Below, in pieces: positions 2,190 to 15,988 of a stretch of 40,793 nt of DNA. The notes beneath the pieces are model-generated. The model saw nothing but the letters and a program-made list of their open reading frames with translations, made no database searches and was not told the DNA's origin. The stretch spans positions 1-40,793 of the IMG/VR virus record IMGVR_UViG_3300020204_000143, one strand, 5' to 3'. This stretch comes from a virus. How positions within the stretch are numbered: the stretch's first letter is position 1; the number at the start of each line of letters is the position of its first letter. The translations under genes were made by a program, and so were the position numbers.

Positions 2190-3569
2190 TTAGATGTTTA
2201 TCAATTTAAATTTTTTCTTTGGTTTCCAATTTTCAAATGCACCTTCCATACCTTCAATGAGTGCATCACACATAGCTTCTCTACTTAACTTACCTTCTCC
2301 CATCATCCACTTTCTACCTTTCAATCCAGCAGCTTTTCTATCTTCTATTGGAGTTTGATACCATTCCATAATCAAAGGCGATACATCTTCAAAATCAATT
2401 CTATCATCAAAAATATATGGTGTTGGAACTGAACCCGTTGTTGAACGAACTGGCCAAATTGGTTTTACCCAATCTCCCCAAACGTGTGTATTCTTTTTAT
2501 GCTTATTGTGTAAAGAACCAATTTCTAAATAATCTTCTGCAGTTAATAATTTACCACTACCCTTAACTCTGAATCCACATTGGTCTTGCAAACCACCCGT
2601 TACAGTTGTAATAATTGGAGTACCAGCCATAATTGATTCAGCTGTACCTAATCCAAACCCTTCGTTTGATGATAACATAATTGTTACATCTGCTAAATTG
2701 TAAAGATAGTTTAGTTCTTCTTCTTTTAGTTTTTCATCTACAAATATGATATTTGCATCTGGCATCAAATGTTCTGCTGTTTTTATCAAATCAGTACCAT
2801 GTTCTTCAACAGGTTTTGTTTTCATAACTAAAACAACCTTATCTCTTTTTTCTTCCGGTAATGCTTCTCTAAATGCGTTGAATGCCAACATCACATCAAT
2901 AGGCTGCTTTCTTCTAATATTTCTATTTGTCCAATAAAGAACAAATTCATATTCTTTATCGCCAAATATTTTATTTTTGAAATCAGTTGGAACATCTACG
3001 GGTTTATAGATATCTGAACGAATACCATGTGGTACATAACTTACTTGCCAATCTTCTGGCTTAGTCCAATGTTTTTCTTTATCCCAACTCCAAACTCTTT
3101 TAGTAATACCATAAGTTTGTTTTGAAATACATCCAATCCAATCACAACTTTCGTAGTAATCTCTATTGTATTTTGGGTCTGGCAAATCATCCCAAATATG
3201 ATAAAAGAACAAAGGTACTGATTGGCGGATTTCATGTTCAATCTCATATAACCAAATCCAATATCTTGGGTCGGTGAAGTGTAGAATTGCATCCGGTTTT
3301 TCCATCATTAACAATTGACGAATAATATCGGCATTTCCATATCCATCAAACGGATATATTTTAACATTAGCATCTTCAACTCCTGTTTGCTTTCTAACGT
3401 CCTCATTTAAATCGAATATTTTTCCTGCTTCTGGGTGTTTGATTGCTGCACCTAATTGTACCCAATCGTACTTATGTACTGTACCTAAAACCAATTGCTT
3501 TGATACATTAGCTATACCACTAGCCATTCTAAGGTCATCGGAGAGTAACAGAATTTTCTTTTTTGCCAT
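2190..3569 (-). CDS. GT4-family (GT-B fold) glycosyltransferase
   Basis: A 459-residue group 1 glycosyltransferase. The N-terminus (KKKILLLSDDLRMASGIANV) is the first strand and loop of the acceptor domain. The C-terminal donor domain shows SSNEGFGLGTAESIMAGTPII, with the E-x7-E pair that contacts the nucleotide sugar. An aromatic-rich linker (YWTNRNIRRKQP) precedes the donor domain, where GT4 enzymes usually begin their second Rossmann fold. The start is preceded by an A-rich AAAAAGTT leader, the common pattern in this genome. It is followed after one base by the second GT4 gene, which suggests a two-step sugar addition, but substrates cannot be read from sequence. Confidence 0.85.
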   Translation of the reverse strand: MAKKKILLLSDDLRMASGIANVSKQLVLGTVHKYDWVQLGAAIKHPEAGKIFDLNEDVRKQTGVEDANVKIYPFDGYGNADIIRQLLMMEKPDAILHFTDPRYWIWLYEIEHEIRQSVPLFFYHIWDDLPDPKYNRDYYESCDWIGCISKQTYGITKRVWSWDKEKHWTKPEDWQVSYVPHGIRSDIYKPVDVPTDFKNKIFGDKEYEFVLYWTNRNIRRKQPIDVMLAFNAFREALPEEKRDKVVLVMKTKPVEEHGTDLIKTAEHLMPDANIIFVDEKLKEEELNYLYNLADVTIMLSSNEGFGLGTAESIMAGTPIITTVTGGLQDQCGFRVKGSGKLLTAEDYLEIGSLHNKHKKNTHVWGDWVKPIWPVRSTTGSVPTPYIFDDRIDFEDVSPLIMEWYQTPIEDRKAAGLKGRKWMMGEGKLSREAMCDALIEGMEGAFENWKPKKKFKLINI

Positions 3570-4722: not shown

Positions 4723-5175
4723 TTATATCTTTAATTTTAGTTTCGTAATTTGTTTTTTCTCTATTCCGTACTTTTCACAAATGTATTTAATATTTTCTCT
4801 ACCTTCTCTAGTAGAGTATAAGATATCAATATATTCTAATGCCTGTGATTCTGGCACTGTAAATTCTTTCTTAATTAACTCAACTAAAAATTCTTCGTAT
4901 TTTTCATCAGCTTTTCCTTTTGTATATTTTAGATATTGCTTTCCTTTTGGAAGAACATTAATATACAATTTGTACATATCCTTTGGTTCTAAGGTTTGAG
5001 TTAATGGTAATAACGATGCAATAAGCTCAACCCATTCCGGCTTCATAGATAAGAATCGGTTAATCATAAAGTTGCTCCACGATTTTTTATCTTCTTCTGA
5101 AAGTTTACTGAAGTAGTTTGGGTCTTGCTCTGCAGTTATTGCATTTAAATGGTCAAATAACTTTTTAGCCGCCAT
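4723..5175 (-). CDS. 62: Clamp loader small subunit, T4 gp62-like
   Basis: A 150-residue helical protein. T4 gp62 has the pattern YSKFMVENALSQFPE ... PRGKRYGKW, and here WSNFMINRFLSMKPEW (about 33-48) and LPKGKQYLKYTKGK (about 75-88) occupy the same places. gp62 is the small partner of gp44; together they load the gp45 clamp at primer ends using ATP. It is shorter than T4 gp62 (187 residues), mainly at the N-terminus. The gp44-like gene is two genes upstream, with a zinc-ribbon gene between. The start overlaps the zinc-ribbon gene by 11 bases, which suggests coupled translation to balance the complex. Confidence 0.8.
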   Translation of the reverse strand: MAAKKLFDHLNAITAEQDPNYFSKLSEEDKKSWSNFMINRFLSMKPEWVELIASLLPLTQTLEPKDMYKLYINVLPKGKQYLKYTKGKADEKYEEFLVELIKKEFTVPESQALEYIDILYSTREGRENIKYICEKYGIEKKQITKLKLKI

Positions 5176-5419
5176 TATTTTCTTCTTTTGTACTTCTTAA
5201 TTCATCAGGTAAAAATTCATCTAATGGTTTACCACAATTAGTACATAAAGGTACTTCGAATGGCATTACGGTATCTCTATCACCGCCGGTTAATAATTTA
5301 GATGCCTTACGAAATCTATACCCCATCATAAATAACAAGTTACCACAATGTCTACATGCTATATCACGTGTATTTTTTAAATCAATTTGTTGTGGTGCTT
5401 GGAATTGCATGTTTTCCAT
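5165..5419 (-). CDS. Small zinc-ribbon protein
   Basis: An 84-residue protein with two CxxC knuckles, C22/C25 (ACRHCGN) and C59/C62 (LCTNCGK), separated by 33 residues. This is a classic zinc-ribbon. The ends are polar and acidic. It sits between the two clamp-loader genes, overlapping each, so it is probably made with them. Small zinc-ribbons in phages often bind nucleic acid or RNA polymerase, but I cannot assign one of these roles. In T4 the late-transcription factors gp33 and gp55 contact the sliding clamp; this protein is not obviously either of them. Confidence 0.8.
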   Translation of the reverse strand: MENMQFQAPQQIDLKNTRDIACRHCGNLLFMMGYRFRKASKLLTGGDRDTVMPFEVPLCTNCGKPLDEFLPDELRSTKEENNGG

Positions 5420-6366
5420 TATTTAATAATATTTAAAATTTGAATAATTGTACTCATAAAAACTATTTCTTTATCTACTACTAAAGCATCTTTGGATAAT
5501 CCATCTGCGATAGTTAAGATTACATTTGCTTTATTGTCACTTGCGTAATCATCTACTTTATCATACAACATTGAATACATTTCCGAATAATCATTTAATC
5601 GATTATCTGCTACCGCCTGTCTGATTTTCATAAATAGATTACGTTTATCATCTGATGATTTTAGTAAATCAATCAATTTAGTTTGAAAGTTTGATTCCAC
5701 CATAATTGTATGGTCTACTTTCAATTCACCTTTAGCTGATTGTAGTTGACAGGTGTTTAAGATTCTACGAATATCAGGGTAATATGAATTGATAATATCA
5801 GCCATATTCTTTGGTTCGTATTTAATCTTTTCTGCATCTAAAATTTTAACAACCTGTACTGCTACATCTTTTTTAGTTGGTGGTGTAATTGCAAATGCTT
5901 GGCAACGGCTTTGAATAGGGTCAATAATTTTCTCAATGTAATTACAAGTCAAAATGAATCGGCAATGCTTACTAAATGTTTCCATTAAGTTTCTTAGAAT
6001 TGCTTGTGCGTTTGGAGTCATATAATCGAACTCATCAAGGATAATCACTTTGTATCCTGCAAAACCTACCGAAGATGCAAAGTTCTTTACCTTTGTTCTT
6101 ACAGTATCTACATTGTTTTCATCCGATGCGTTGATAATCATACTATCACATTTGATTGTGTTTACGATTAACTTTGCTAATGTAGTTTTACCTGTTCCCG
6201 CTTTACCATACAACAATAGATGTGGAATATCATTATTTTCTAAATATTGCTGAATAGTTTCTTTGATAGTTTCATTACCAACATAATCAGCAAGCGTTTG
6301 TGGGCGGTATTTCTCTACCCATAAACTATGCTCTCTTTTGTTTATATCGTTTGCGAAAAAACTCAT
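5419..6366 (-). CDS. 44: Clamp loader large subunit, T4 gp44/RFC-like AAA+ ATPase
   Basis: A 315-residue AAA+ ATPase. The RFC signature EKYRPQTLADYVG is at 18-30. Walker A is GKAGTGKTT (54-62), Walker B is VIILDEFD (107-114), sensor 1 is LTCNY (139-143), and the SRC arginine-finger motif is at 153-155. Length matches T4 gp44 (319). It assembles with the gp62-like subunit and opens the gp45 clamp for the family B polymerase. The stop shares one base with the zinc-ribbon start (TAATG) and the gene lies two bases after the MazG-like gene. Confidence 0.95.
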   Translation of the reverse strand: MSFFANDINKREHSLWVEKYRPQTLADYVGNETIKETIQQYLENNDIPHLLLYGKAGTGKTTLAKLIVNTIKCDSMIINASDENNVDTVRTKVKNFASSVGFAGYKVIILDEFDYMTPNAQAILRNLMETFSKHCRFILTCNYIEKIIDPIQSRCQAFAITPPTKKDVAVQVVKILDAEKIKYEPKNMADIINSYYPDIRRILNTCQLQSAKGELKVDHTIMVESNFQTKLIDLLKSSDDKRNLFMKIRQAVADNRLNDYSEMYSMLYDKVDDYASDNKANVILTIADGLSKDALVVDKEIVFMSTIIQILNIIK

Positions 6367-6671: not shown

Positions 6672-6977
6672 TTAGTTTTTACTTTCTAATTCTCTTTGTT
6701 TTTTTGATTCTTCGCTAATTGGTCTTGGGAATATACTAAATTCCATACCATTTTGTCTAAATGTTAATCTATCGCTTTCGTTTGGTTGAATTTGCAATAC
6801 CAATGGAGAAGCTTCTGAGTTTTCATTATTCCAAGCGAATACTACTGGTTCATTGTTAAAAAATTGAAAACACCATTCTGCGTCCTGAATAACTTTTGGT
6901 TGTTGGGGTTCAACACTACCTTGCTCTGGTGGAAATAATTCTAATTGTTCCATTTCTTTTTTCTTAGCCATTTTCAT
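6672..6977 (-). CDS. Hypothetical protein with a QLELF clamp-binding-type motif
   Basis: A 101-residue protein with no recognised domain. After a basic start (MKMAKKKEME) residues 11-15 read QLELF, followed by two prolines. This is nearly the bacterial beta-clamp-binding pentapeptide QL(S/D)LF and also resembles a short PIP box. The rest is polar, with a beta-like middle (PVVFAWNN) and a charged C-terminus. The start codon overlaps the sliding clamp stop by one base (TAATG). A clamp-binding peptide directly downstream of the clamp gene suggests a clamp partner, but function is inferred from the motif and position only. Confidence 0.7.
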   Translation of the reverse strand: MKMAKKKEMEQLELFPPEQGSVEPQQPKVIQDAEWCFQFFNNEPVVFAWNNENSEASPLVLQIQPNESDRLTFRQNGMEFSIFPRPISEESKKQRELESKN

Positions 6978-7690
6978 TAATTTTGAATTTCTACTAAATA
7001 ATATTTACAAACGAACTCATCAATAATGAATTCAACGTGAGCTAATCCATCAGCTGATACTTTGAGTTTAGCGGATGTTGCTTCTTTATTAGCCGTTAAA
7101 ATTTCTTTTAGATACTTAGCGGAGAATGAAATGGGTTTAACTTCACCAGCGAATCCTTTTTCACAAGTGAATGTTACTCTATTTGTAGAGATTGTTGAAT
7201 AACCAATAGCCATTTTCAAATCACCACCTTCAGTAAATACAGTGAAAGTATCAATATCGGATAATGCACCTTTTGCTTTGATAAATTTATCAATCATAGT
7301 GGATGCCATTTCGATTGAAATACCGAATTCTGGTAATTGTTTCAAATCAGGTACCGCAGGAATTACACCTAAATCTGCTAATTGGTAAGATGTTTCAGTT
7401 TCTTCTGAATTTAATTTCAATACAGTTGCTTTATCACCTACTGTATCTACATTAAGATTAATATCATTATCCAAAATACCAATAAGGTTTTTCAATAATG
7501 ATGTGGTATAAATACCAATGTTGAATGGTTTTGATGTAAAGCCATTAAAATCCACTTCACCAAGCATTGTCTTGTCATCAGAAATAAAACGTACTGAAAG
7601 TTTGTTACCTTCTGCGTTCCAAGCTACTGATTCAATAACTCCACCCAATGAATACTTTTGAATGAATCGTGTTAAATTGTTTTTGTTCAT
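6977..7690 (-). CDS. 45: DNA polymerase sliding clamp, T4 gp45-like
   Basis: A 237-residue protein with the length (T4 gp45 is 228) and alternating strand/helix pattern of the phage trimeric clamp. It lies between the family B polymerase and the clamp loader, exactly where a T4-type clamp is expected. Segments such as LLKNLIGILDND and EMASTMIDKFIKAKGALSD fit the long helices that line the central channel. It tethers the polymerase to DNA and in T4 also couples replication to late transcription. A TTTG-N20-TATATTTG promoter lies upstream with a 31-base leader, so this gene starts the clamp/loader operon. Confidence 0.85.
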   Translation of the reverse strand: MNKNNLTRFIQKYSLGGVIESVAWNAEGNKLSVRFISDDKTMLGEVDFNGFTSKPFNIGIYTTSLLKNLIGILDNDINLNVDTVGDKATVLKLNSEETETSYQLADLGVIPAVPDLKQLPEFGISIEMASTMIDKFIKAKGALSDIDTFTVFTEGGDLKMAIGYSTISTNRVTFTCEKGFAGEVKPISFSAKYLKEILTANKEATSAKLKVSADGLAHVEFIIDEFVCKYYLVEIQN

Positions 7691-7753: not shown

Positions 7754-10309
7754 TTAAAAGGAAAAAAACTTTTTAGCAGTTTGAGCTTCCGTACTAGCTT
7801 TTTCCCACTTTAAAGCTTTGTAGAAATCATCAATTTTGTTCTCTAATTCTGCTTTGTAAATCTCATCTCTATCTATATATTGCTCTACAAAATCCATAAC
7901 CTGTTTAGGGTCATTGTAATCTTTGAATGCTAATCCTTCTAATCCTAATGGGTTTGTTTTTAGATATACCCACTTTACTTTATCACCATCTCTGATTGGT
8001 TCGTGTTTATATGGACAGTTAAAGAATTTTAGTAATCGGTTATATGCTATTCCGGCTTTGACGTGTGCAGGTGTTCCTTTTTCAAAATCTGCAATTGATT
8101 TACCTTTAACCCAACTACCATTATCATATTTACTCAATTCTTTTATTGCCCCACCTTTAGCGATTTTATTTACAGGTAAAATAGCCATTGATTTTTTGAA
8201 GTTCAATAATGATTCATCTATTTCTGAATTAGATTTACTCATTAGAATATCTTTTAATAACTTAGCCATAAAGTCCTGAAATGCTTTGGGGAATGAAGAA
8301 CGAACAACATCTAATCCCTTAACATCTAACTTATCACAGGGGATACCATTTTTCAAAATCATCCATTGTGCGTATCTTTTCTTTGCTACCCAAAATCCAG
8401 CCTTGCTGATATACTCTTTCTTAATCTCAAAACGATGCTTATCTTTTGGAATAAAGAAAAACCTTTCTGCTAATAAATCATAAAACTTATTTAGGAATGA
8501 TTGAGTTTCTTCAGCAATAGTATTAACTTCTTCAGCCATTCTATTCTGGTCAAATTCTTTGTAGTTTGGATAACGATGCTTCACCAATGGTTCAGCCATC
8601 ATATAGATAGAATCAGTATCTATATAAACATTGTAGTCGTCTCTTGTTCCGAGTTCTTTCCAGTATTTGATGTTTGCCATTTCTGCTGTCTTTTTGATAA
8701 CAGTTTGGCCGGTGATTGTAACCGCTTCTGCATTATCAATATCATAAAACCTAAAGGCAGGCAGACCAAGAACACCATACATAGAGTTAAGAAGAATCTT
8801 CTGAACCAATTGTCTCTTTGCATAAAATTCGTATTTTTCTGTATCTTTTTCTTCTCCGTATTTTTTTTCTAACTTTCGGAATTCAACTCTTTTTTGAAAC
8901 CAATCATTTAGGATATCAGCAATAAGACCAGGCTTATCCTGATTATATAATACTCCATTTGCTGCTATTCCTAAATTACTATCTTTAATTACTTCTGATA
9001 ATTCAGTTCTATTGTATTCGTATGTACTACCCTCTTTACCAACTAATTTATAAACCTTATCTTCTCCTCTAATCCATTCTTCAGCATCCCAATTCTGAAC
9101 TTTACCAATCTTTGTTTCTGGTGAAATGTTTAATGTCATAATGATTGATGGATATAGTGATGTTAAATCCAAATCATATATCCAATCATACTTACCAACG
9201 ATGGGTTCTTTTACATATGCTCCAATAAACTTTTCTTCGTTGTTATCTCTAAGAGCTTGCATTCTTTCCTTCCTATCTTTTGGTTTGTTGGTTGCCACCA
9301 ATCTTTTCTTTTTCAGATATCCCAAACACGCCCCTTCTAACCACTTTGATGAAAAAATGTAATCTTCATATGGAACGTAGCCCGCGTGGCAAACTGCTCT
9401 ACATAATTCAATGAACTGAAGTTTGTTATCCATTGCTACAACCAAGTCCACATCGACAATGTTATATTCAATGAATTTTTCCAAATCAGTTTCAAATAGG
9501 TCATCTAAATTACCTTCATACTCTACTTTACCTCTACCCAATTCTTTTGTAGCGATATAGTTCAATGTATAAGATGATTCTAATGTGTATGTGTATGTTT
9601 TGTAAAGATTGAGATAATCTAAAATACTTACACCACCAAATTGCCATTTATCTCTATAAGGTGAATAGAATGTCTGTCCTACGGGCGATAATCGTTTAGC
9701 GTTACCCTCACCGCATATATTTTTGATACGATTATAAAGATACGGAATATCAAAGAAGTCGATGTTCCAACCTGTTAGAATTGTTGGATTAACTTCTTCG
9801 TAATAGTTTATAAAGGATTGTAATAGATTTCGTTCATTATCAAAGATATGAATCTTAGCCTGTCTACCATCTTTGTTAAACTGATTGGTGTTATTTTTTA
9901 TCTTTCTTTCTTTATCTAAAACGAATACATCGAATAATTTGGTAGCTCCATCGTATGCGGCAATTGATGTAATTTCGTTTTTAGCTTCTTTTGTGTTTGG
10001 TAGGCCTGATACCATTTCTACCTCAATATCAAATGTAAGAACTCTATGTCCATTTGATGGTAAATCACTATCGTATATATCAACTAAGACTCTCGTAGTT
10101 TCGGGTACATCCGATTCGAATAAATCTTCAGCTTCATCCTTTTCCCACTTAGATATTTTGGTCAATTTATCACCATACATTGAACGGAATTCTCCATATG
10201 GGTCTTTTTTATAAGCATATTTACGATAAGGAAAAGTTGTATATCCTCTTTCATCATCCCATAAATGTATCAGGTTTCTTTGCCTTTCGTAATAAATGTT
10301 TTGATACAT
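7754..10309 (-). CDS. 43: Family B DNA polymerase, T4 gp43-like
   Basis: An 851-residue replicative polymerase with proofreading. Exo I is TFDIEVE (D94, E96), Exo II is GWNIDFFD (180-187), and Exo III is YNIVDVD (282-288). The polymerase motifs are DLTSLYPSI (motif A, 381-389), KILLNSMYG (motif B, 504-512) and YIDTDS (motif C, 562-567). All catalytic acids are present. T4 gp43 is 898 residues, so the protein is complete. The C-terminal end KKFFSF resembles the clamp-binding tail of T4-type polymerases. It follows a glycosyltransferase gene with a one-base overlap and is followed by the clamp promoter. Confidence 0.97.
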   Translation of the reverse strand: MYQNIYYERQRNLIHLWDDERGYTTFPYRKYAYKKDPYGEFRSMYGDKLTKISKWEKDEAEDLFESDVPETTRVLVDIYDSDLPSNGHRVLTFDIEVEMVSGLPNTKEAKNEITSIAAYDGATKLFDVFVLDKERKIKNNTNQFNKDGRQAKIHIFDNERNLLQSFINYYEEVNPTILTGWNIDFFDIPYLYNRIKNICGEGNAKRLSPVGQTFYSPYRDKWQFGGVSILDYLNLYKTYTYTLESSYTLNYIATKELGRGKVEYEGNLDDLFETDLEKFIEYNIVDVDLVVAMDNKLQFIELCRAVCHAGYVPYEDYIFSSKWLEGACLGYLKKKRLVATNKPKDRKERMQALRDNNEEKFIGAYVKEPIVGKYDWIYDLDLTSLYPSIIMTLNISPETKIGKVQNWDAEEWIRGEDKVYKLVGKEGSTYEYNRTELSEVIKDSNLGIAANGVLYNQDKPGLIADILNDWFQKRVEFRKLEKKYGEEKDTEKYEFYAKRQLVQKILLNSMYGVLGLPAFRFYDIDNAEAVTITGQTVIKKTAEMANIKYWKELGTRDDYNVYIDTDSIYMMAEPLVKHRYPNYKEFDQNRMAEEVNTIAEETQSFLNKFYDLLAERFFFIPKDKHRFEIKKEYISKAGFWVAKKRYAQWMILKNGIPCDKLDVKGLDVVRSSFPKAFQDFMAKLLKDILMSKSNSEIDESLLNFKKSMAILPVNKIAKGGAIKELSKYDNGSWVKGKSIADFEKGTPAHVKAGIAYNRLLKFFNCPYKHEPIRDGDKVKWVYLKTNPLGLEGLAFKDYNDPKQVMDFVEQYIDRDEIYKAELENKIDDFYKALKWEKASTEAQTAKKFFSF

Positions 10310-11466
10310 TAACCTATTAATTTTTTATGTAGTATAGAAAACATTTTTGAATCGTTTTCTGATAATTCGTTTGCTCTTTCCAATGCTATTCTTTCTCTCT
10401 CACATCTATAAGTATCGTCATCCAATATCTTATCCAACAATACAAATAATTCTTTCTGATTATTGAAAAATATACCATTCGGGTCTATCTCTCTATAACA
10501 ATCTGAATTATGGAAAATCATTGGCGTGCCGTTCATCATACAATCGGTGGCAGATACACTCCATCCATAATTTGTTTGTAGTGGCTGTATTCCAACTTTG
10601 CACAATTGTAATTTATTATAATATGCTTGCTTTGATGCTTCTTTTGTAGTATCAAACCAAGGTAATTTTTTATCACCATTTTCGTATTGAGGCACCCATA
10701 CCTTAATATCAGGTCTATGTTTTTTATATGCTTCCATATATCCAACAAACTTATTATAATTTTTATATCCAGCGGTTCGGTGATTGAATACAATTATATT
10801 ATGTTTATTTGGATTTGGTTGTTGCAATACTTTATCCTTTGCTACGCCCAAATTCCAAACAACTAATTTTTTATCAAGCATTTCTAAAGTAGAATCACTA
10901 AAGAAAGTCTTTGCTTCTTCGATTACTTTATTTTTTTGGTCTTGCGTATTAAGAAAGCAAGTATCCATTTGTAGTACACCTAATATTTCATTTGGTAACC
11001 ACAACTCTTTTGCCTTACCAGGTCTATTATCCACACCATTACAATGACTCATTTCCCACCAATGACAATAACCTATAATCTTAGTATCTGCTGTTTTCTT
11101 ATATCTACCCACTACACTCCAATCAGGCAAATGAGAATAGATAATATCGTAGTCAGTTTCTTTCATTACTCTGACTAATTCTTCCGGTGGAAAGCATCTT
11201 TGGTTCATCATATCACCAGGTATAGGAACTTCAATTTGCTTTACATTGTCAAGCATATTTAATTTTGCTGATGGATTTCCTTTGGGCATTATTACATACC
11301 AAAAATATTCACCATAGTTTCTTAGTGTACTAATGTGATTAAAAATAACATCAACGAATGAATCTTTTTCAATTTCCCTATAATTGGTTATATTGGGTAT
11401 GACCAATACTTTTCTTGCCGTATTATAATTAATTGTTGTTTCCCAAAATTTCATGTTATCTACCAA
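10309..11466 (-). CDS. GT-B glycosyltransferase
   Basis: A 385-residue protein with a two-domain GT-B layout. The first half has Rossmann strands (KVLVIPNITNY; DIIYSHLPDWSVVG). The second half begins with IIVFNHRTAGYKNYNKFV and continues with KVGIQPLQTNYGWSVSATDCMMNGTPMIFH, the donor-binding region of GT4-like enzymes. The first glutamate of the usual E-x7-E motif is absent, so donor contacts differ from the two GT4 proteins at the left end. It overlaps the DUF4338-like gene upstream by 11 bases and abuts the polymerase, so it is co-expressed with DNA-modification and replication genes. That supports, but does not prove, DNA as acceptor. Confidence 0.75.
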   Translation of the reverse strand: MVDNMKFWETTINYNTARKVLVIPNITNYREIEKDSFVDVIFNHISTLRNYGEYFWYVIMPKGNPSAKLNMLDNVKQIEVPIPGDMMNQRCFPPEELVRVMKETDYDIIYSHLPDWSVVGRYKKTADTKIIGYCHWWEMSHCNGVDNRPGKAKELWLPNEILGVLQMDTCFLNTQDQKNKVIEEAKTFFSDSTLEMLDKKLVVWNLGVAKDKVLQQPNPNKHNIIVFNHRTAGYKNYNKFVGYMEAYKKHRPDIKVWVPQYENGDKKLPWFDTTKEASKQAYYNKLQLCKVGIQPLQTNYGWSVSATDCMMNGTPMIFHNSDCYREIDPNGIFFNNQKELFVLLDKILDDDTYRCERERIALERANELSENDSKMFSILHKKLIG

Positions 11467-12685
11467 CTTCTTTTAGGTAATTTTCTTTCATACCTTCCCA
11501 TGTCATTCCAATCGCATCTACATAAAATAGAACTTCTGGTTTTATTTTACTTTCTTCAAACAATTTCTCATATCGTTTGATTGCTTTACCTTTCCACCAT
11601 TTTAAAGTATATTCATTTCCTTTCTCAAATTTATCTTTTAGAATCAAATCTTTCTCTTCAATTTTATCACATAAGAACTGATTTCCATTCTCATACATTT
11701 GAGCAAAGTAAACACCTCTTTGGAATCCGTGGTCATATTCATTTCCTTTAATTCCCAATTCTTTAAAAATTGCCTGAATAATCTTTTGTTTGATACCACT
11801 AACAGGTCCGTTCTTTTCGTAACCCATATTAGCACCATTACGTTCTCTCTCATCCATAATATTTTTCTTATACCATTCTGGTCGATTTTCTTTTAACCAT
11901 TGATGCCACGGGTCATATACCTCATCATCAGGCTTTGTAGAAATCCTACCTTTGGATTCTCCTAATGTTTTGAAATGTGGAATACCATTGTATTGTGAGT
12001 GAATACCATACAAAGATGTTGTACCAATACCAATCAATGGATTATCATATTTTTGTTTCCAATAATCTCTAATTTCAGGTGCAGTTGCCAATGCTGCGAT
12101 TAACTTACCACCTAAAAAGTTATATCCAAATGGTTGAGTAGATACGATGGTTGTAGCAATCGATGTACAATTTAATTTACCTTTCTCAAACTTATCTTCT
12201 TTGGTCCAACCAATGTATTCATCTCTTACGCCTAATGATGTAATATCTGAACCTAAACATATCTGTCCTAATATTTTTCCACTTGTTCTATCCTTAACAT
12301 ATATTTTTACGTTTCTACCAGGATTAGCCTGAAATTCCATTGTATGAATTAATTTACGAATTTCAGTCCAACGAGTAGATTCTTTTGGGTCATCATCTAC
12401 AATTTCCACATAGGGGTCTATTGATTCAATTTCTTTAATTGTTAATTCTTTATCGAAGATATTGGTTGGTTTCCACAATGAATCGTAATACGATTGTAAT
12501 ACGGGCAATCGTTTCATATTAGAAACTCTATCCATATTCCATTCTATCCATTTTTTGTACAAAGTTTGTTCTTGTACTGACATTGTTTTAAGATAGTTCA
12601 AATTATCAATGAACTTCTTTTTCATTATATGATAGTCAAATGTGGCGGTATTTGTTTCTTCGCCAGTATCCCAAAATTTATTCAT
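11456..12685 (-). CDS. DUF4338/Druantia DruA-like protein, probable DNA-modification enzyme
   Basis: A 409-residue protein. Residues about 125-250 resemble the DUF4338 (DruA) pattern: SGKILGQICLGSD, then RDEYIGW (154-160), then PFGYNFLGGKLIAAL, then DYWKQKYDNPLIGIGTTSLYG, then YNGIPHFKTLGESKGR. DruA is known from the Druantia anti-phage system, but stand-alone relatives occur in phages. No DruB-DruE partners are present, so this is not a Druantia operon. The rest is charged and helical. It follows directly after two Mom-like genes and has its own promoter, with the ATG four bases past the -7 box. A role in DNA base modification or anti-restriction is inferred from context. Confidence 0.6.
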   Translation of the reverse strand: MNKFWDTGEETNTATFDYHIMKKKFIDNLNYLKTMSVQEQTLYKKWIEWNMDRVSNMKRLPVLQSYYDSLWKPTNIFDKELTIKEIESIDPYVEIVDDDPKESTRWTEIRKLIHTMEFQANPGRNVKIYVKDRTSGKILGQICLGSDITSLGVRDEYIGWTKEDKFEKGKLNCTSIATTIVSTQPFGYNFLGGKLIAALATAPEIRDYWKQKYDNPLIGIGTTSLYGIHSQYNGIPHFKTLGESKGRISTKPDDEVYDPWHQWLKENRPEWYKKNIMDERERNGANMGYEKNGPVSGIKQKIIQAIFKELGIKGNEYDHGFQRGVYFAQMYENGNQFLCDKIEEKDLILKDKFEKGNEYTLKWWKGKAIKRYEKLFEESKIKPEVLFYVDAIGMTWEGMKENYLKEVGR

Positions 12686-12689
12686 ATTA

Positions 12690-12721
12690 CAAATATACTA
12701 AAAATAATTTAGATTACCAAA
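12690..12721 (-). promoter_or_regulatory. Bacteroidetes-type promoter for the DruA-like gene
   Basis: TTTG (12721-12718), a 20-base spacer and TATATTTG (12697-12690) on the minus strand. The -33 box lies inside the last codons of the Mom-like gene, within the small palindrome at 12716-12728. Only TAAT separates the -7 box from the ATG at 12685, predicting a leaderless message. Confidence 0.75.
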
Positions 12722-13517
12722 ATTTGGTATCTATTTCGGTTTCAGGTGCGATTGTTTCCCAATGCTGAATATCTTTATTGAAAGCACGGGTATCTTTTGG
12801 ATAAGGTCTGATTTCGTGTTTGAAAGATTTCATAATTGCTTTCTTTTCCTTCTTATCAGCTGTAATAATTTGTAGGTATCTATGCTTTGGTGGTTCTTCC
12901 CTTCTCCAAAATTCTTTATATCCTTGCTTTCCAATTTCTCTACGAAGATGTTCTAAGTTACCACTACCCCATTTTGTAAATACAGTCCTACTATGAATCC
13001 ATTTGTAAGGGTCATTTGAAAGGGAAATACCATAATTTGGCATTAACGCAATATCAGTATTTAACCCCTGATATATCCAATTAGTTGCTTGGTAAATACC
13101 ACCCAAATGCTCTTGTCCATTATCGGCATAAGAAATAAGTGTTTTGATTTCTTTATCATTTTCTCTGAACCATTTGAATGATTGCCCCATCGCATATGAT
13201 TCGATATTAGAACCATACCCATCATCACAATAAAGACGAGTTAATTCTAATACATTATCTTTTGTAAGTAAATCTGAAATAGAAGTTGCTGCTCTAGCTC
13301 CAACGGGAAATCCATAAACTATACATCCAATCAATTTGGTATCTTCACCCAAAGCATTGGTTGTATCCATTTTGTAAAAAATACCTAATGCATATCTACA
13401 AGCAGTCCAGGCGTGAGTATAGTGTTTCTTTACGATAATATCTTTTGCTACATCTTTACCAATTGGTGCAATAAATACTTTTGATGTATCGCAATAATTT
13501 TTACCTTCTTCTTTCAT
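12714..13517 (-). CDS. Mom-family DNA adenine hypermodification enzyme, paralogue A
   Basis: A 267-residue GNAT-fold protein of the phage Mu Mom type. Mom converts adenine in DNA to a N6-carbamoylmethyl derivative and blocks many restriction enzymes. Visible features are the basic start of the fold with HY (32-33), KLIGCIVYG (61-69), VLELTRLY (89-96), ISYAD (128-132) and the signature EHLGGIYQATNWIYQG (136-151). The C-terminal 100 residues are basic (RREEPPKHRYLQI) and may bind DNA. It aligns closely over its length with the neighbouring upstream gene, four bases away, so the two arose by tandem duplication. Substrate specificity is unknown. Confidence 0.85.
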   Translation of the reverse strand: MKEEGKNYCDTSKVFIAPIGKDVAKDIIVKKHYTHAWTACRYALGIFYKMDTTNALGEDTKLIGCIVYGFPVGARAATSISDLLTKDNVLELTRLYCDDGYGSNIESYAMGQSFKWFRENDKEIKTLISYADNGQEHLGGIYQATNWIYQGLNTDIALMPNYGISLSNDPYKWIHSRTVFTKWGSGNLEHLRREIGKQGYKEFWRREEPPKHRYLQIITADKKEKKAIMKSFKHEIRPYPKDTRAFNKDIQHWETIAPETEIDTKFW

Positions 13518-13521
13518 AACC

Positions 13522-14277
13522 TTAATTTACTGGTTCTAATTTATGTATTTCTTCTACAAATTCCTCGCTCACTTTTGGATATTTTAGTGATGGGTATTTT
13601 AAATTTTTTAATAACTTTTTTCTTTCTTTTCCGTTAATCAAAATATAAATATAACGATGTTTACGTGGTTCTTTTTTAATCCAAAATGGTGATGTTACCA
13701 TTGTTTGAATTATCTTTGGGTCATTCGTTCCATACTTCACATATGAAGTTCTACTATGATGCCATTCATCAATTTCACTCCATTTGAAAGACCAACTATC
13801 GTTTGGTCGGATTCGATTACCTTGATATATCCAATTCGTTGCCTGATATACAGTTCCTAAATGTCCTGCTTTCGGGTCTGAATAAGATACTAATGCTTTG
13901 ATGTGTGGTGCGTTTTCTCTTAACCATTGGAATGTTTTACCAACAAACCAACTCTCAATATTACTACCATACCCATCAAATACAAATAAACGGGTAAGTT
14001 CTAAAACTTCCGTTCTATCTAATGTTTCACAAATAGATGCGCCAGAGTGTCTACCCACCGGGTCTCCATAACATGCTACACCAATAAGTTTTTCGTTTAC
14101 ACCACCAAAGAATTTATGTTCATCGTTTGATAAATAAAACAATCCAATCGCATATGATACTTTTGTCCATATACCACTATAATGATTGTTTACGATAATA
14201 TCCTTAGCTACGTCTTTACTTATTAATCTAATAGAAAGTTTGGATATATCACAATATTGTTTACCATCTACTTTCAT
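13522..14277 (-). CDS. Mom-family DNA adenine hypermodification enzyme, paralogue B
   Basis: A 251-residue Mom-like protein. It shares with paralogue A the opening KDVAKDIIV, HY (32-33), KLIGVACYGDPVG (63-75), VLELTRLF (91-98), GYGSNIES, VSYSD (130-134), GHLGTVYQATNWIYQG (138-153), HSRTSYVKYG and the basic EPRKHRYIYI. In the motif before the signature it has SYSD where A has SYAD. All core Mom positions I can see are kept in both copies, so neither looks like a pseudogene. Divergence between the copies suggests different sequence contexts or substrates, or a hetero-oligomer. It follows a 52-residue ORF after four bases. Confidence 0.85.
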   Translation of the reverse strand: MKVDGKQYCDISKLSIRLISKDVAKDIIVNNHYSGIWTKVSYAIGLFYLSNDEHKFFGGVNEKLIGVACYGDPVGRHSGASICETLDRTEVLELTRLFVFDGYGSNIESWFVGKTFQWLRENAPHIKALVSYSDPKAGHLGTVYQATNWIYQGNRIRPNDSWSFKWSEIDEWHHSRTSYVKYGTNDPKIIQTMVTSPFWIKKEPRKHRYIYILINGKERKKLLKNLKYPSLKYPKVSEEFVEEIHKLEPVN

Positions 14278-14281
14278 TAAA

Positions 14282-14440
14282 TTACTTTGTACATTCTTCT
14301 AAAGCTATTTCATATGCATCTACTTTATCCATTTTAGGGTCCTCTTGCATAAGAGCTTTAGCCTTTTTAATAACTTCTTTTCTAACACCATATCCATGTG
14401 CTTCCATTAGGATTTCTTCAATGATTTCTTCGTTTGACAT
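14282..14440 (-). CDS. Small acidic helical protein, 52 residues
   Basis: An ATG at 14440 opens a 52-codon frame ending TAA at 14284-14282. The start is MSNEEIIEEILMEAHGYGV and the end is IALEECTK. It is rich in Glu and Lys and should be mostly alpha-helical. It fits tightly between the HTH gene (three bases upstream) and Mom paralogue B (four bases downstream), and the frame fills the gap exactly, which supports a real gene. I do not recognise a family. Position suggests an accessory to the modification genes, but nothing in the sequence proves this. Confidence 0.65.
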   Translation of the reverse strand: MSNEEIIEEILMEAHGYGVRKEVIKKAKALMQEDPKMDKVDAYEIALEECTK

Positions 14441-14443
14441 AAC

Positions 14444-14674
14444 TTAAACTTTTTCATATGGCCACTTAATCATATGTGTCCACGTTTGGTTTGTAACAAT
14501 TTTTTTGATGTTAGCGGGTGATACACCATTGTTTCTGGCTAATACTTTGACATTACGATGCCCAACTTTCCAAAGTTCTCTAATTTGAGTAACCTGCTTT
14601 TCCGTAAGTTTGTGCATCGGATGCGCTTCACCTTTTAACATACGTCTAATATAACACTTTTTTTTGATAATCAC
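14444..14674 (-). CDS. Small helix-turn-helix protein related to homing-endonuclease DNA-binding tails
   Basis: A 76-residue frame if a GTG at 14674 is used (GTGA overlap with the SGNH stop) or 65 residues from the ATG at 14641. The segment GEAHPMHKLTEKQVTQIREL, then LARNNGVSPANIKKIVTNQTW, is the KLTE...V..IR...GVS...I..I...TW pattern of the helix-turn-helix found at the ends of phage HNH homing endonucleases. No HNH catalytic motif is present. It could be a remnant of a homing gene or a small regulator of the modification genes that follow. The ATG start fits a possible weak promoter at 14674-14703. Confidence 0.7.
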   Translation of the reverse strand: MIIKKKCYIRRMLKGEAHPMHKLTEKQVTQIRELWKVGHRNVKVLARNNGVSPANIKKIVTNQTWTHMIKWPYEKV

Positions 14675-15267
14675 AAATATTTCTCTATTTTATTATAAAC
14701 AAATTCTGCTATTTTTTTATATCCATTTAAATTTGGATGCAATCCCCCCTCTTTTACTCCATCATATCCATAAAATGCTTCATTTTCAAAATATGGTATG
14801 CCTGTTAATTTTTCGGAATCTCTTAAATAATCTGCGAATGTATAAGTTGGTTCTATAAACCTTTCAAAATTCAAATTTATTGGAGTTTCATCATTAAACA
14901 TTGGATAGAATGCATTAAAATAGTATCGATTATATTCTTTTAATAATTCGTCTATTATCTTATAATCATTGTTTGGAGTTGTTAAATTTCTATATGGAAA
15001 TGAAAATGCTATTAGTATCAAATCGGTTGATAATAATTCATCCATATTTTCTTTTATAAGTTTGTAAATATCATTGTTTCCGAAGTTATTACACTTTCCC
15101 ATATTAATAAAAGGAACTCCCAACTTTTCAGCAACATATCTTGGCCAAGAATTCATTCTACGATAGTAATCTTCAAAATCATTTGGAAAACCATGTCCTT
15201 TCCATTTATTGCTATCGCTCAATCCATAACCATTTGTATATGAATCCCCAAATGTAACCAATCTCAT
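14671..15267 (-). CDS. SGNH/GDSL-type hydrolase
   Basis: From the ATG at 15267, one base after the upstream stop, the protein has 198 residues; a longer frame begins at 15285 but would overlap the previous gene. Block I is FGDSYTNGYG with the nucleophile serine at 9. Blocks II/III are blurred: NMGKCNNFGNND, then ILIAFSFPYR. Block V is EGGLHPNLNGY, which keeps the catalytic histidine but has glycine where DxxH normally has aspartate. SGNH enzymes are esterases, often deacetylating carbohydrates. It follows a glycosyltransferase, so sugar-ester removal is a reasonable guess. No signal peptide, so it acts in the cytoplasm or on the virion. Confidence 0.7.
   Translation of the reverse strand: MRLVTFGDSYTNGYGLSDSNKWKGHGFPNDFEDYYRRMNSWPRYVAEKLGVPFINMGKCNNFGNNDIYKLIKENMDELLSTDLILIAFSFPYRNLTTPNNDYKIIDELLKEYNRYYFNAFYPMFNDETPINLNFERFIEPTYTFADYLRDSEKLTGIPYFENEAFYGYDGVKEGGLHPNLNGYKKIAEFVYNKIEKYL
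14674..14703 (-). promoter_or_regulatory. Possible weak promoter before the HTH/Mom gene group
   Basis: TTTG (14703-14700), an 18-base spacer and AATATTTG (14681-14674) on the minus strand. It differs from the strong sites by one base in the -7 box and two bases in spacing, and lies inside the end of the SGNH gene. It would drive the HTH, small acidic and two Mom-like genes. Confidence 0.35.
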
Positions 15268-15268
15268 A

Positions 15269-15988
15269 TTAATCTTTTTTTCCAAAATTCTTTATTATAT
15301 AATCATTTGTGTGTAAATTTACACCAAACTCATTATAGGTTTCTGAAATATGGCCGATAATATAATTTACTTTATATCCTAATTGTATTGCAGCCATTCC
15401 TAATAAATTTTCCATACATGCTGAACCTGATTTATTTGTAGGTAATATTTTATGAAAGTTTTTTTCTTTTAATTCTTTTAAAAATTGATTCTTGCATATA
15501 AACAAATTAAATACAAATGTTTTAAATCCATATGGTTTATATGGTATATCGCATATTTTGATATGAGATATACACCATTCTTGCTCTCCTATTTTATTTG
15601 ATTCATAATCATTTGAATAGAAAAATGAGCTAATTTCTTTATCGGAGTTTGGGTAATGTTTTGTTAAATCTGTAACAGGAATAGTTGTATCTTGCAAAAA
15701 CATATAATGTTCTTCATTTGGATATTTTTCATATGCTTTCCAAATTGCACCTACTTCATAATTTTCGTTTCCTTCTATAATATCAACATCTTCTAATAAA
15801 TTATAATATGATTTATCTTCAGAATTACTATCAACTACAACTATTTTTTGATTTGGCATATATTGCTTACATGCTAAATAAACATATTCTATGTTAGAAG
15901 AACTACCTGTGTATGGAAACTTATTGGGAACTTTAAATTCCTTTTTTAATCCATAATCATTCGTATATTTACAACCAATTATAATCAA
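15269..15988 (-). CDS. Putative GT-A-like glycosyltransferase
   Basis: A 239-residue protein. Elements fitting a small GT-A fold are VVVDSNSEDKSYYNLL (a strand and donor loop), then NENYEVGAIWKAYEKYP, then YMFLQDTTIPV, in which the acidic residue at the end of the strand could take the place of the DxD metal motif. The rest of the chain is not diagnostic. The start codon appears to be TTG at 15988, four bases after the thioredoxin stop; no early ATG exists. It lies one base before the SGNH hydrolase, making a two-gene carbohydrate unit. The family call is tentative. Confidence 0.5.
   Translation of the reverse strand: MIIIGCKYTNDYGLKKEFKVPNKFPYTGSSSNIEYVYLACKQYMPNQKIVVVDSNSEDKSYYNLLEDVDIIEGNENYEVGAIWKAYEKYPNEEHYMFLQDTTIPVTDLTKHYPNSDKEISSFFYSNDYESNKIGEQEWCISHIKICDIPYKPYGFKTFVFNLFICKNQFLKELKEKNFHKILPTNKSGSACMENLLGMAAIQLGYKVNYIIGHISETYNEFGVNLHTNDYIIKNFGKKD

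What the first reader, a model, noticed from the sequence alone, without database searches (positions are those of the whole stretch)
10309..14674. A DNA-modification island: HTH, small acidic ORF, two Mom-like genes, DruA-like gene, glycosyltransferase
Six adjacent genes combine two Mom-like enzymes, a DUF4338/DruA-like protein, a GT-B transferase and a solitary HTH protein, directly upstream of the DNA polymerase. An undescribed possibility is that adenine is first given a Mom-type adduct and that the further enzymes extend it, in the way T4 glucosylates hydroxymethylcytosine.
Basis: inference. Interest (0 to 1): 0.75.

Follow-up and report, generated by a model that had tools for sequence, protein, structure and literature searches.

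The report
Phage DNA-modification genes sharing docking tails
A family of uncultivated T4-like phages carries two Mom-type DNA-modifying enzymes, a structurally similar DruA-like protein and a sugar transferase beside its DNA polymerase, and three of these proteins end or begin with the same short Phe-Trp tag, which suggests that they dock on one partner, perhaps the replication machinery, and modify phage DNA as it is copied.

Summary
The six genes exist as described. Two are Mom enzymes (PF25680, 46% identical to each other, catalytic Ser conserved). One is DruA/DUF4338. One is a very divergent GT-B-like transferase. The HTH and the 52-aa ORF get no firm assignment.

DruA's modelled fold is a GNAT, and its best solved match is Mu Mom (Z 9.5, tied with AAC(6')-Ib). 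The island therefore holds three GNAT-type proteins, not Mom plus an unrelated defence gene.

Linkage is strong in the window's own uncultivated clade (18 of 21 longer contigs carry both) but not universal: 7 of 8 DruA-bearing isolates lack Mom and 6 of 6 Mom-bearing isolates lack DruA.

The new finding is a short terminal aromatic tag. Mom2 ends in [FY]W (91 of 91 distinct sequences), DruA begins M..FW[DE] (137 of 154), and the GT begins M.[FY]W (all 47 of its subfamily plus one separate GT clade). In a 198-kb relative the four tagged genes lie within five consecutive genes of 217. Codon data favour selection on the peptide. T4 alpha-glucosyltransferase binding to its sliding clamp is a published precedent.

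Best reading: a replication-coupled Mom-type modification module. GT extension of the Mom adduct is unproven; the clamp as partner is inferred.

The parts
14444..14674 (-). 76-aa HTH-like protein, first gene of the island
   Evidence: weak PHROG HNH/HTH matches; homologue just upstream of Mom1 in 68 of 80 Mom-seeded loci
14282..14440 (-). 52-aa acidic ORF, not conserved in most relatives
   Evidence: weak phrog_2065; found in a minority of loci
13522..14277 (-). Mom1, Mom-family GNAT (251 aa); Ser109 aligns with Mu Mom Ser124
   Evidence: PF25680 5e-44; AlphaFold model pLDDT 88.7 matches 8bv8 Z 20.6; alignment to 8bv8
12714..13517 (-). Mom2, second Mom paralogue (267 aa)
   Evidence: PF25680 1e-41; phmmer to 8bv8
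12717..12722 (-). C-terminal FW tag of Mom2 (last two codons)
   Evidence: [FY]W at the C-terminus in 91/91 distinct homologues; W 0 bits and F 0.21 bits entropy against mostly 1-3 bits in the linker
11456..12685 (-). DruA-like (DUF4338) GNAT-fold protein, 409 aa
   Evidence: PF14236 4.5e-20; model pLDDT 89.0; best PDB match Mu Mom 8bv8 Z 9.5, then GNATs
12671..12676 (-). N-terminal FW tag of the DruA-like protein (MNKFWDT)
   Evidence: FW in the first 25 aa of 137/154 distinct homologues; FF[DE] variant in the L239-L243 group
10309..11454 (-). GT-B-like glycosyltransferase (381 aa from the ATG)
   Evidence: weak PF13439/PF00534; alignment A4; no phage isolate relative
11443..11448 (-). N-terminal FW tag of the GT (MKFWETT)
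   Evidence: tag in 47/47 subfamily-A GTs and in an 8-member clade of subfamily B; the tree forces at least 2 changes
7754..10309 (-). family B DNA polymerase, C-terminus KKFFSF (conserved FFxF)
   Evidence: PF00136, PHROG 262; C-terminal FF[SAG]F across loci
6977..7690 (-). sliding clamp (by position and resemblance), candidate docking partner
   Evidence: position between polymerase and clamp-loader genes in the window and relatives; no clamp family scan was run on it; binding not tested
5419..6366 (-). clamp-loader large subunit (RFC-like ATPase)
   Evidence: sequence and position; in some relatives DruA sits between clamp and this gene
4723..5175 (-). clamp loader A subunit
   Evidence: PF16790 8e-10

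Best explanation
A Mom-type DNA-acylation module coupled to replication. Shown by sequence or model: two intact Mom paralogues; a DruA-like protein with a GNAT fold; a divergent GT; and a shared terminal aromatic tag (F-[WF], usually with D/E after it when N-terminal) on Mom2, DruA and the GT. Inferred: Mom1 and Mom2 put carbamoylmethyl-type adducts on adenines of newly made phage DNA; DruA is a third enzyme of the same fold that binds or acylates DNA; and the tag docks Mom2, DruA and the GT to one shared partner at the fork, most plausibly the sliding clamp, since the polymerase has a similar aromatic C-terminal tail. The GT therefore probably acts on DNA or a base adduct rather than on the cell surface. 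The purpose would be protection from host nucleases. Rough confidence by step: Mom chemistry 0.9; DruA GNAT fold 0.85; tag is a real docking peptide 0.75; partner is the clamp 0.4; GT glycosylates a base or adduct 0.35.
For: Mom: PF25680 far above cut-off for both; model versus Mu Mom 8bv8 Z 20.6; Ser124 (inactive mutant S124A in 8bv8) aligns with Ser109, invariant in 27 sequences. DruA: leading PDB hits are acyltransferases, with 8bv8 top of 997 chains; a 2024 paper independently calls DUF4338 a GNAT domain (PMC10853773). Both families share G-x-N in the same strand-to-helix loop: Mom D101-x-x-G104-x-N106, DruA Q184-P-x-G187-x-N189. Tag: only 3 of 42 window genes have a terminal FW, and they are adjacent; 91/91, 137/154 and 54/85 in Mom2, DruA and GT against about 0 in polymerase, clamp, clamp loader, RNR, PhoH and Trx; in a 198-kb relative, 4 tagged genes span 5 of 217 consecutive genes (permutation p about 1e-5); the GT tag needs at least 2 changes on the tree, and all 8 tagged subfamily-B GTs touch DruA. 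Replisome link: DruA lies next to clamp and clamp-loader genes in relatives and between gp44 and gp62 in cyanophages. Precedents: T4 alpha-GT binds gp45 (PMC13216743); T4 gp43, gp55 and gp33 share interchangeable terminal clamp peptides on divergent linkers (PMC2988020).
Against: No binding, chemistry or nucleoside data. DruA also occurs without Mom, and Mom without DruA. Cyanophage DruA proteins lack the tag. One GT clade of 21 sequences has no tag. The tag is not the canonical T4 clamp peptide (LDFL) and is N-terminal in two of three proteins. Mom1 has no tag. The DruA-Mom structural match is tied with ordinary GNATs, and the profile-profile match is weak (E=0.005, probability 8%). In T4 the clamp contact of alpha-GT was found not to be what sets glucosylation levels.
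Confidence: 0.5

Rival explanations
1. The tag is an assembly tag: Mom2, DruA and the GT dock onto each other or onto an island scaffold such as Mom1 or the HTH protein, forming one modification complex not tied to the clamp.
For: Tagged genes cluster. The tagged subfamily-B GTs are all adjacent to DruA. Some HTH homologues end in NEFWSGSL.
Against: A tagged 252-aa SGNH-like protein beside the polymerase is outside the Mom set. DruA and GT can sit 14 kb from the Moms yet keep their tags next to clamp and clamp loader.
Confidence: 0.25
2. The Mom pair modifies DNA, while DruA and the GT do unrelated jobs (anti-defence; surface or capsid glycosylation) and merely lie in the same replication block.
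For: DruA is not tied to Mom outside this clade. Jumbo cyanophages carry GT clusters read as surface-polysaccharide genes (PMC7824862). The window has another GT4 elsewhere (2190-3569). The GT is variable between relatives.
Against: The shared terminal tag on Mom2, DruA and GT, conserved inside otherwise variable tails and present on a second GT clade.
Confidence: 0.2
3. The island is a restriction-modification-like arms locus: Mom (with or without DruA) marks phage DNA as self and an exchangeable nuclease beside it cuts host or competitor DNA.
For: A slot after Mom2 holds unrelated 400-680 aa proteins in relatives, some recognisable as GmrSD_N plus HNH, GIY-YIG-like or ParB-like; an N6/N4 methylase also occurs. 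Jumbo-phage Mom domains are fused to nucleases (PMC7824862).
Against: The slot is empty in the window; most slot proteins have no match to any family, and several may be mobile homing endonucleases.
Confidence: 0.2
4. The FW signature is a nucleotide-level signal near gene boundaries (for example translational control), not a peptide.
For: The Phe codon of the tags is TTT in 93-100% against about 63% elsewhere in the genes of the set.
Against: Internal FW pairs also use TTT in 85% of cases (94-99% within Mom2 and GT), so the codon-pair habit explains most of the bias. Aromatic swaps F to Y and W to F occur, and the FF variants vary at synonymous sites (TTCTTC, TTTTTT, TTTTTC) with the peptide kept. 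The motif is always in frame.
Confidence: 0.05

Closest known systems
Phage Mu Mom (PDB 8bv8)
   Same: Both window Moms match the family HMM; Mom1's modelled fold matches 8bv8 and the catalytic Ser is conserved.
   Different: Two paralogues in tandem (up to four in relatives), while 298 Mom-bearing phage records each hold exactly one place; Mom2 carries a tagged C-terminal extension.
DruA / DUF4338 (Druantia)
   Same: PF14236 and PADLOC DruA matches.
   Different: Found in a phage, in the replication block, with an N-terminal tag; no other Druantia component was seen among the window proteins scanned with Pfam. Druantia context was not tested in relatives.
T4 alpha- and beta-glucosyltransferase acting on hydroxymethylcytosine
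   Same: A phage DNA-modification region with a GT and possible recruitment to the sliding clamp (PMC13216743).
   Different: The GT here matches GT4-type Pfam models weakly and not PF11440 or PF09198; no hmC pathway gene was identified in the window proteins scanned; the first base modification would be Mom-type on adenine.
T4 clamp-binding tails of gp43, gp55, gp33
   Same: Short aromatic terminal peptide after a divergent linker, shared by functionally different proteins (PMC2988020).
   Different: The motif is FW or FF rather than LDFL-type, and is N-terminal in DruA and GT.
Jumbo-phage Mom systems with fused endonuclease (PMC7824862)
   Same: Mom next to nuclease functions in relatives.
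   Different: Nucleases are separate, exchangeable genes here and absent in the window.

Membership tests
Mom (PF25680) | match to the family profile above the curated cut-off | tested here: met
   142.9 and 150.8 bits against 27.1
Mom (PF25680) | Mom fold close to Mu Mom | tested here: met
   Mom1 model versus 8bv8 Z 20.6, 189 residues, next best 12.2
Mom (PF25680) | catalytic Ser (S124 of 8bv8) | tested here: met
   Mom1 Ser109, invariant across A2 including Mom2
Mom (PF25680) | His-Tyr, Asp and Tyr residues proposed as iron ligands (from memory, Karambelkar et al. 2020; paper not held) | tested here: met
   Align with H32, Y33, Y144 (invariant) and D134 (at least 90%); their role itself rests on memory
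Mom (PF25680) | modifies adenine in DNA | not testable with these tools
   needs nucleoside mass spectrometry
DruA (PF14236) | match to the family profile above the cut-off | tested here: met
   72.4 bits against 27; PADLOC 1e-20
Druantia defence system | companion genes such as the DruE helicase | not tested
   Pfam scans covered many window proteins without showing such a gene, but no DruE search was run in the window or relatives
GNAT superfamily (for the DruA-like protein) | GNAT fold | tested here: met
   Model pLDDT 89.0; leading PDB matches are GNAT-type acyltransferases, Z up to 9.5
Mom (for the DruA-like protein) | profile match and catalytic Ser | tested here: not met
   No PF25680 hit; the Mom Ser position is Gly192 in DruA by motif alignment; profile comparison weak
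T4 alpha-/beta-glucosyltransferase | match to PF11440 or PF09198 | tested here: not met
   Pfam scan of the GT gave only PF13439 and PF00534, below cut-off
GT-B / GT4 glycosyltransferase | profile match above cut-off | tested here: inconclusive
   E=8e-5 and 0.005, both below cut-off; no sequence match to a solved GT
T4-type sliding-clamp-binding peptide | short hydrophobic and acidic terminal peptide that binds the clamp | tested here: inconclusive
   Aromatic terminal tag with D/E present; sequence differs from LDFL; binding not testable here

The most novel reading that the evidence does not exclude
A replisome-tethered multi-enzyme DNA hypermodification assembly: two Mom paralogues, a Mom-like DruA acyltransferase and a glycosyltransferase all recruited to the sliding clamp through one interchangeable F-[WF] tag, making a composite (acylated then further acylated and/or glycosylated) adenine that I know from no organism. 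It would also give DruA, whose biochemical role is not known to me, a concrete activity on DNA to test.
Probability: 0.2. Interest if true: 0.87.

Novelty: new variant of a known kind. Interest (0 to 1): 0.62.

Why it matters
Phage DNA modification is usually read off from lists of neighbouring enzymes; here a short tag gives independent evidence about which neighbours act together, and it suggests how the enzymes reach new DNA. It links Mom, DruA (a defence protein whose activity is not known to me) and a glycosyltransferase in one testable proposal. If the tag binds the clamp, tag searches could reveal other replication-coupled modification or counter-defence proteins in T4-like phages.

Tried and rejected
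Megablast of the region against phage records: no match. DNA-level explanation of the FW signature: rejected after the internal FW codon control and the synonymous variation of the FF variants. 'DruA always travels with Mom': rejected on isolate genomes. DruA as a true Mom family member: rejected (no HMM hit, no Ser). Sequence search of PDB for DruA: nothing; for the GT: only chance hits. Number of tagged proteins as evidence: not significant alone (4 observed against 1.4 expected by shuffling); only clustering and conservation count. Most proteins of the variable slot have no family match. Papers on Mom biochemistry that I looked for are not held, so residue roles beyond S124A rest on memory. 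No abundance of adenine adducts can be inferred from sequence.
Full report
All six ORFs lie on the - strand at the stated places. Pfam, PHROGs and PADLOC give Mom for 12714-13517 and 13522-14277, DruA for 11456-12685, and a weak GT4-type signal for 10309-11466. The HTH gene and the 52-aa ORF have only weak matches. The GT most likely begins at the ATG at 11454, giving MKFWETTINYN. The window is a 40.8-kb virus contig with a T4-like replication block: family B polymerase, clamp and clamp loader, gp32-like SSB, UvsX/RecA, DnaB-like helicase, and RNR, with a T4 baseplate gene further on. The nearest isolate polymerase is that of Microcystis phage Mel-JY01, 48.8% identical, a phage with neither Mom nor DruA.

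The two Moms look catalytically intact. Mom1's model (pLDDT 88.7) matches Mu Mom 8bv8 at Z 20.6, far above other GNATs. The inactivating S124A site of 8bv8 aligns with Ser109, which is invariant in 27 sequences of both paralogues. By the numbering I recall from Karambelkar et al. 2020 (not held, from memory), the four proposed iron ligands align with H32, Y33, Y144 (invariant) and D134 (at least 90%). Mom multiplicity is unusual: 298 isolate phage records hold 298 places, whereas the related contigs hold mostly two, sometimes three, and one has four Mom-like genes within about 3 kb (L161).

DruA is a GNAT protein. Its model (pLDDT 89.0) gives acyltransferases at the top of the PDB lists; re-alignment of 997 chains puts Mu Mom first (Z 9.5, 174 residues, 4.1 A), tied with AAC(6')-Ib at 9.0. 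A 2024 study had already called DUF4338 a GNAT domain (PMC10853773). At the strand-to-helix loop of the fold, Mom has D101-x-x-G104-x-N106-x-E-S109 and DruA has Q184-P-x-G187-x-N189-x-L-G192, with G and N invariant in both. The Mom catalytic Ser is thus absent from DruA, and DruA is not a Mom family member. The direct profile comparison is weak (E=0.005). DruA domains elsewhere include a fusion to a ParB-like domain (L244).

Linkage. Mom1 and Mom2 are adjacent in 75 of 80 Mom-seeded loci, and an HTH homologue precedes Mom in 68. Of 21 longer virus contigs, 19 have Mom, 20 have DruA and 18 have both. But DruA moves: next to Mom2 in one group, between clamp and clamp loader in another. Outside the clade, 7 of 8 isolates with DruA lack Mom (S-SSM7 has both, about 70 kb apart), and 6 of 6 isolates with Mom lack DruA. 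In most of the cyanophages examined DruA lies between the gp44 and gp62 clamp-loader genes. So DruA's steady companion is the replisome block, and Mom is an added companion in this clade. The recurring order inside the clade partly reflects common descent.

The terminal tag. In the window only three of 42 genes have FW within eight residues of an end: GT (MKFWETT), DruA (MNKFWDT) and Mom2 (...DTKFW at the very end), which are three adjacent genes. Across distinct homologues, Mom2 ends [FY]W in 91 of 91, DruA has N-terminal FW in 137 of 154, and the GT in 54 of 85; polymerase, clamp, clamp loader, RNR, PhoH and Trx have essentially none. The tag residues are nearly invariant (0 to 0.2 bits) while most of the Mom2 linker varies by 1 to 3 bits. 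In the near-complete 198-kb relative G006 the tagged genes are a 252-aa SGNH-like ORF beside the polymerase, the GT, DruA and Mom2, all within five consecutive genes of 217 (permutation p about 1e-5); the mere count (4 against 1.4 expected) would not be remarkable. A GT tree shows the tag in all 47 subfamily-A GTs and in one clade of eight subfamily-B GTs, requiring at least two changes; all eight of these touch DruA, while a sister clade of 21 lacks it. Other island proteins also show it: a small ORF between Mom1 and Mom2 ending KKYW or NYW and a protein with a NUMOD3 motif (GIY-YIG-like by eye) ending NNFW.

Peptide or nucleotide signal? The Phe codon in the tags is almost always TTT, which looked like a DNA-level constraint. 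But internal Phe-Trp pairs in the same gene set also use TTT in 85% of cases, and 94-99% in Mom2 and GT, so the codon-pair habit accounts for most of it. Aromatic replacements (Y for F, F for W) occur, and the FF variant varies synonymously while the peptide stays. Selection on the peptide is the better reading.

Partner. The polymerase ends in a conserved FF[SAG]F. [quoted passage not shown] RB69 paper PMC6024577), although that contact was found not to set glucosylation levels. By analogy I place the tags on the clamp, at about 40%. The alternative, that tags hold the enzymes to each other, is not excluded.

Mechanism proposed: Mom1 and Mom2 acylate adenines on new phage DNA; DruA is a third GNAT-type enzyme or reader at the fork; the GT, recruited by the same tag, acts on DNA or on an adduct. 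Steps shown: family membership, folds by model, tag conservation, linkage. Steps inferred: substrate, order of reactions, docking partner.

A further feature of the relatives is a slot after Mom2 that holds different large proteins, including a GmrSD_N plus HNH protein, homing-endonuclease-like and ParB-like proteins, which would fit a mark-and-cut arrangement; the window has nothing there.

Noticed in passing
L093:10450-12141, L060:8605-9996, L094:9320-10534, L099:5179-6870, L115:11958-13967, L095:8558-10396: In related islands a slot after Mom2 holds mutually unrelated 400-680 aa proteins (GmrSD_N plus HNH, homing-endonuclease-like, ParB-like, several with no family); it is empty in the window.
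   Followed up: partly
L244:1800-3611 and L249:4912-7113: DruA domain fused to an N-terminal ParB_N domain (archaeal MAG contig) and to a 380-aa unassigned N-terminal region (Verrucomicrobium MAG).
   Followed up: partly
L121:16508-17266, L011:9283-10038, L045:10354-11100: A 250-aa SGNH-like protein between polymerase and clamp also starts with the tag (M..LKFW); the window lacks it but has an untagged GDSL hydrolase at 14671-15285.
   Followed up: partly
L161:1816-4904: Four Mom-like genes within about 3 kb on one virus contig that shows no polymerase or clamp nearby.
   Followed up: partly
HTVC008M (KC465899) 86386 and 99793: Pelagibacter phage HTVC008M has two DruA-family genes and no Mom.
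   Followed up: no
L216, L236, L237 and contig G006 at 58100-60600: The polymerase reading frame appears in two pieces in some relatives, with small ORFs between them; inserted mobile element or split gene.
   Followed up: no
HTH homologues in several loci: Some HTH proteins end in NEFWSGSL, an FW near the C-terminus.
   Followed up: no
contig G019:7924-8541: A third Mom copy with two internal stop codons, apparently decaying.
   Followed up: no
BFVD matches of the DruA model (A0A3G4ZXG3, A0A5K0UAJ3, A0A3G4ZRA1): DruA-like folds occur in giant-virus proteins (Faunusvirus, Yasminevirus, Dasosvirus).
   Followed up: no
L112:8031-8780 and L142:11549-12226: Relatives carry a PLOD-type glycosyltransferase and a sulfotransferase in the same island.
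   Followed up: no
window 2190-3569: A second GT4-type glycosyltransferase (PF00534 1e-11, also GT4-conflict) in the window, untagged.
   Followed up: no
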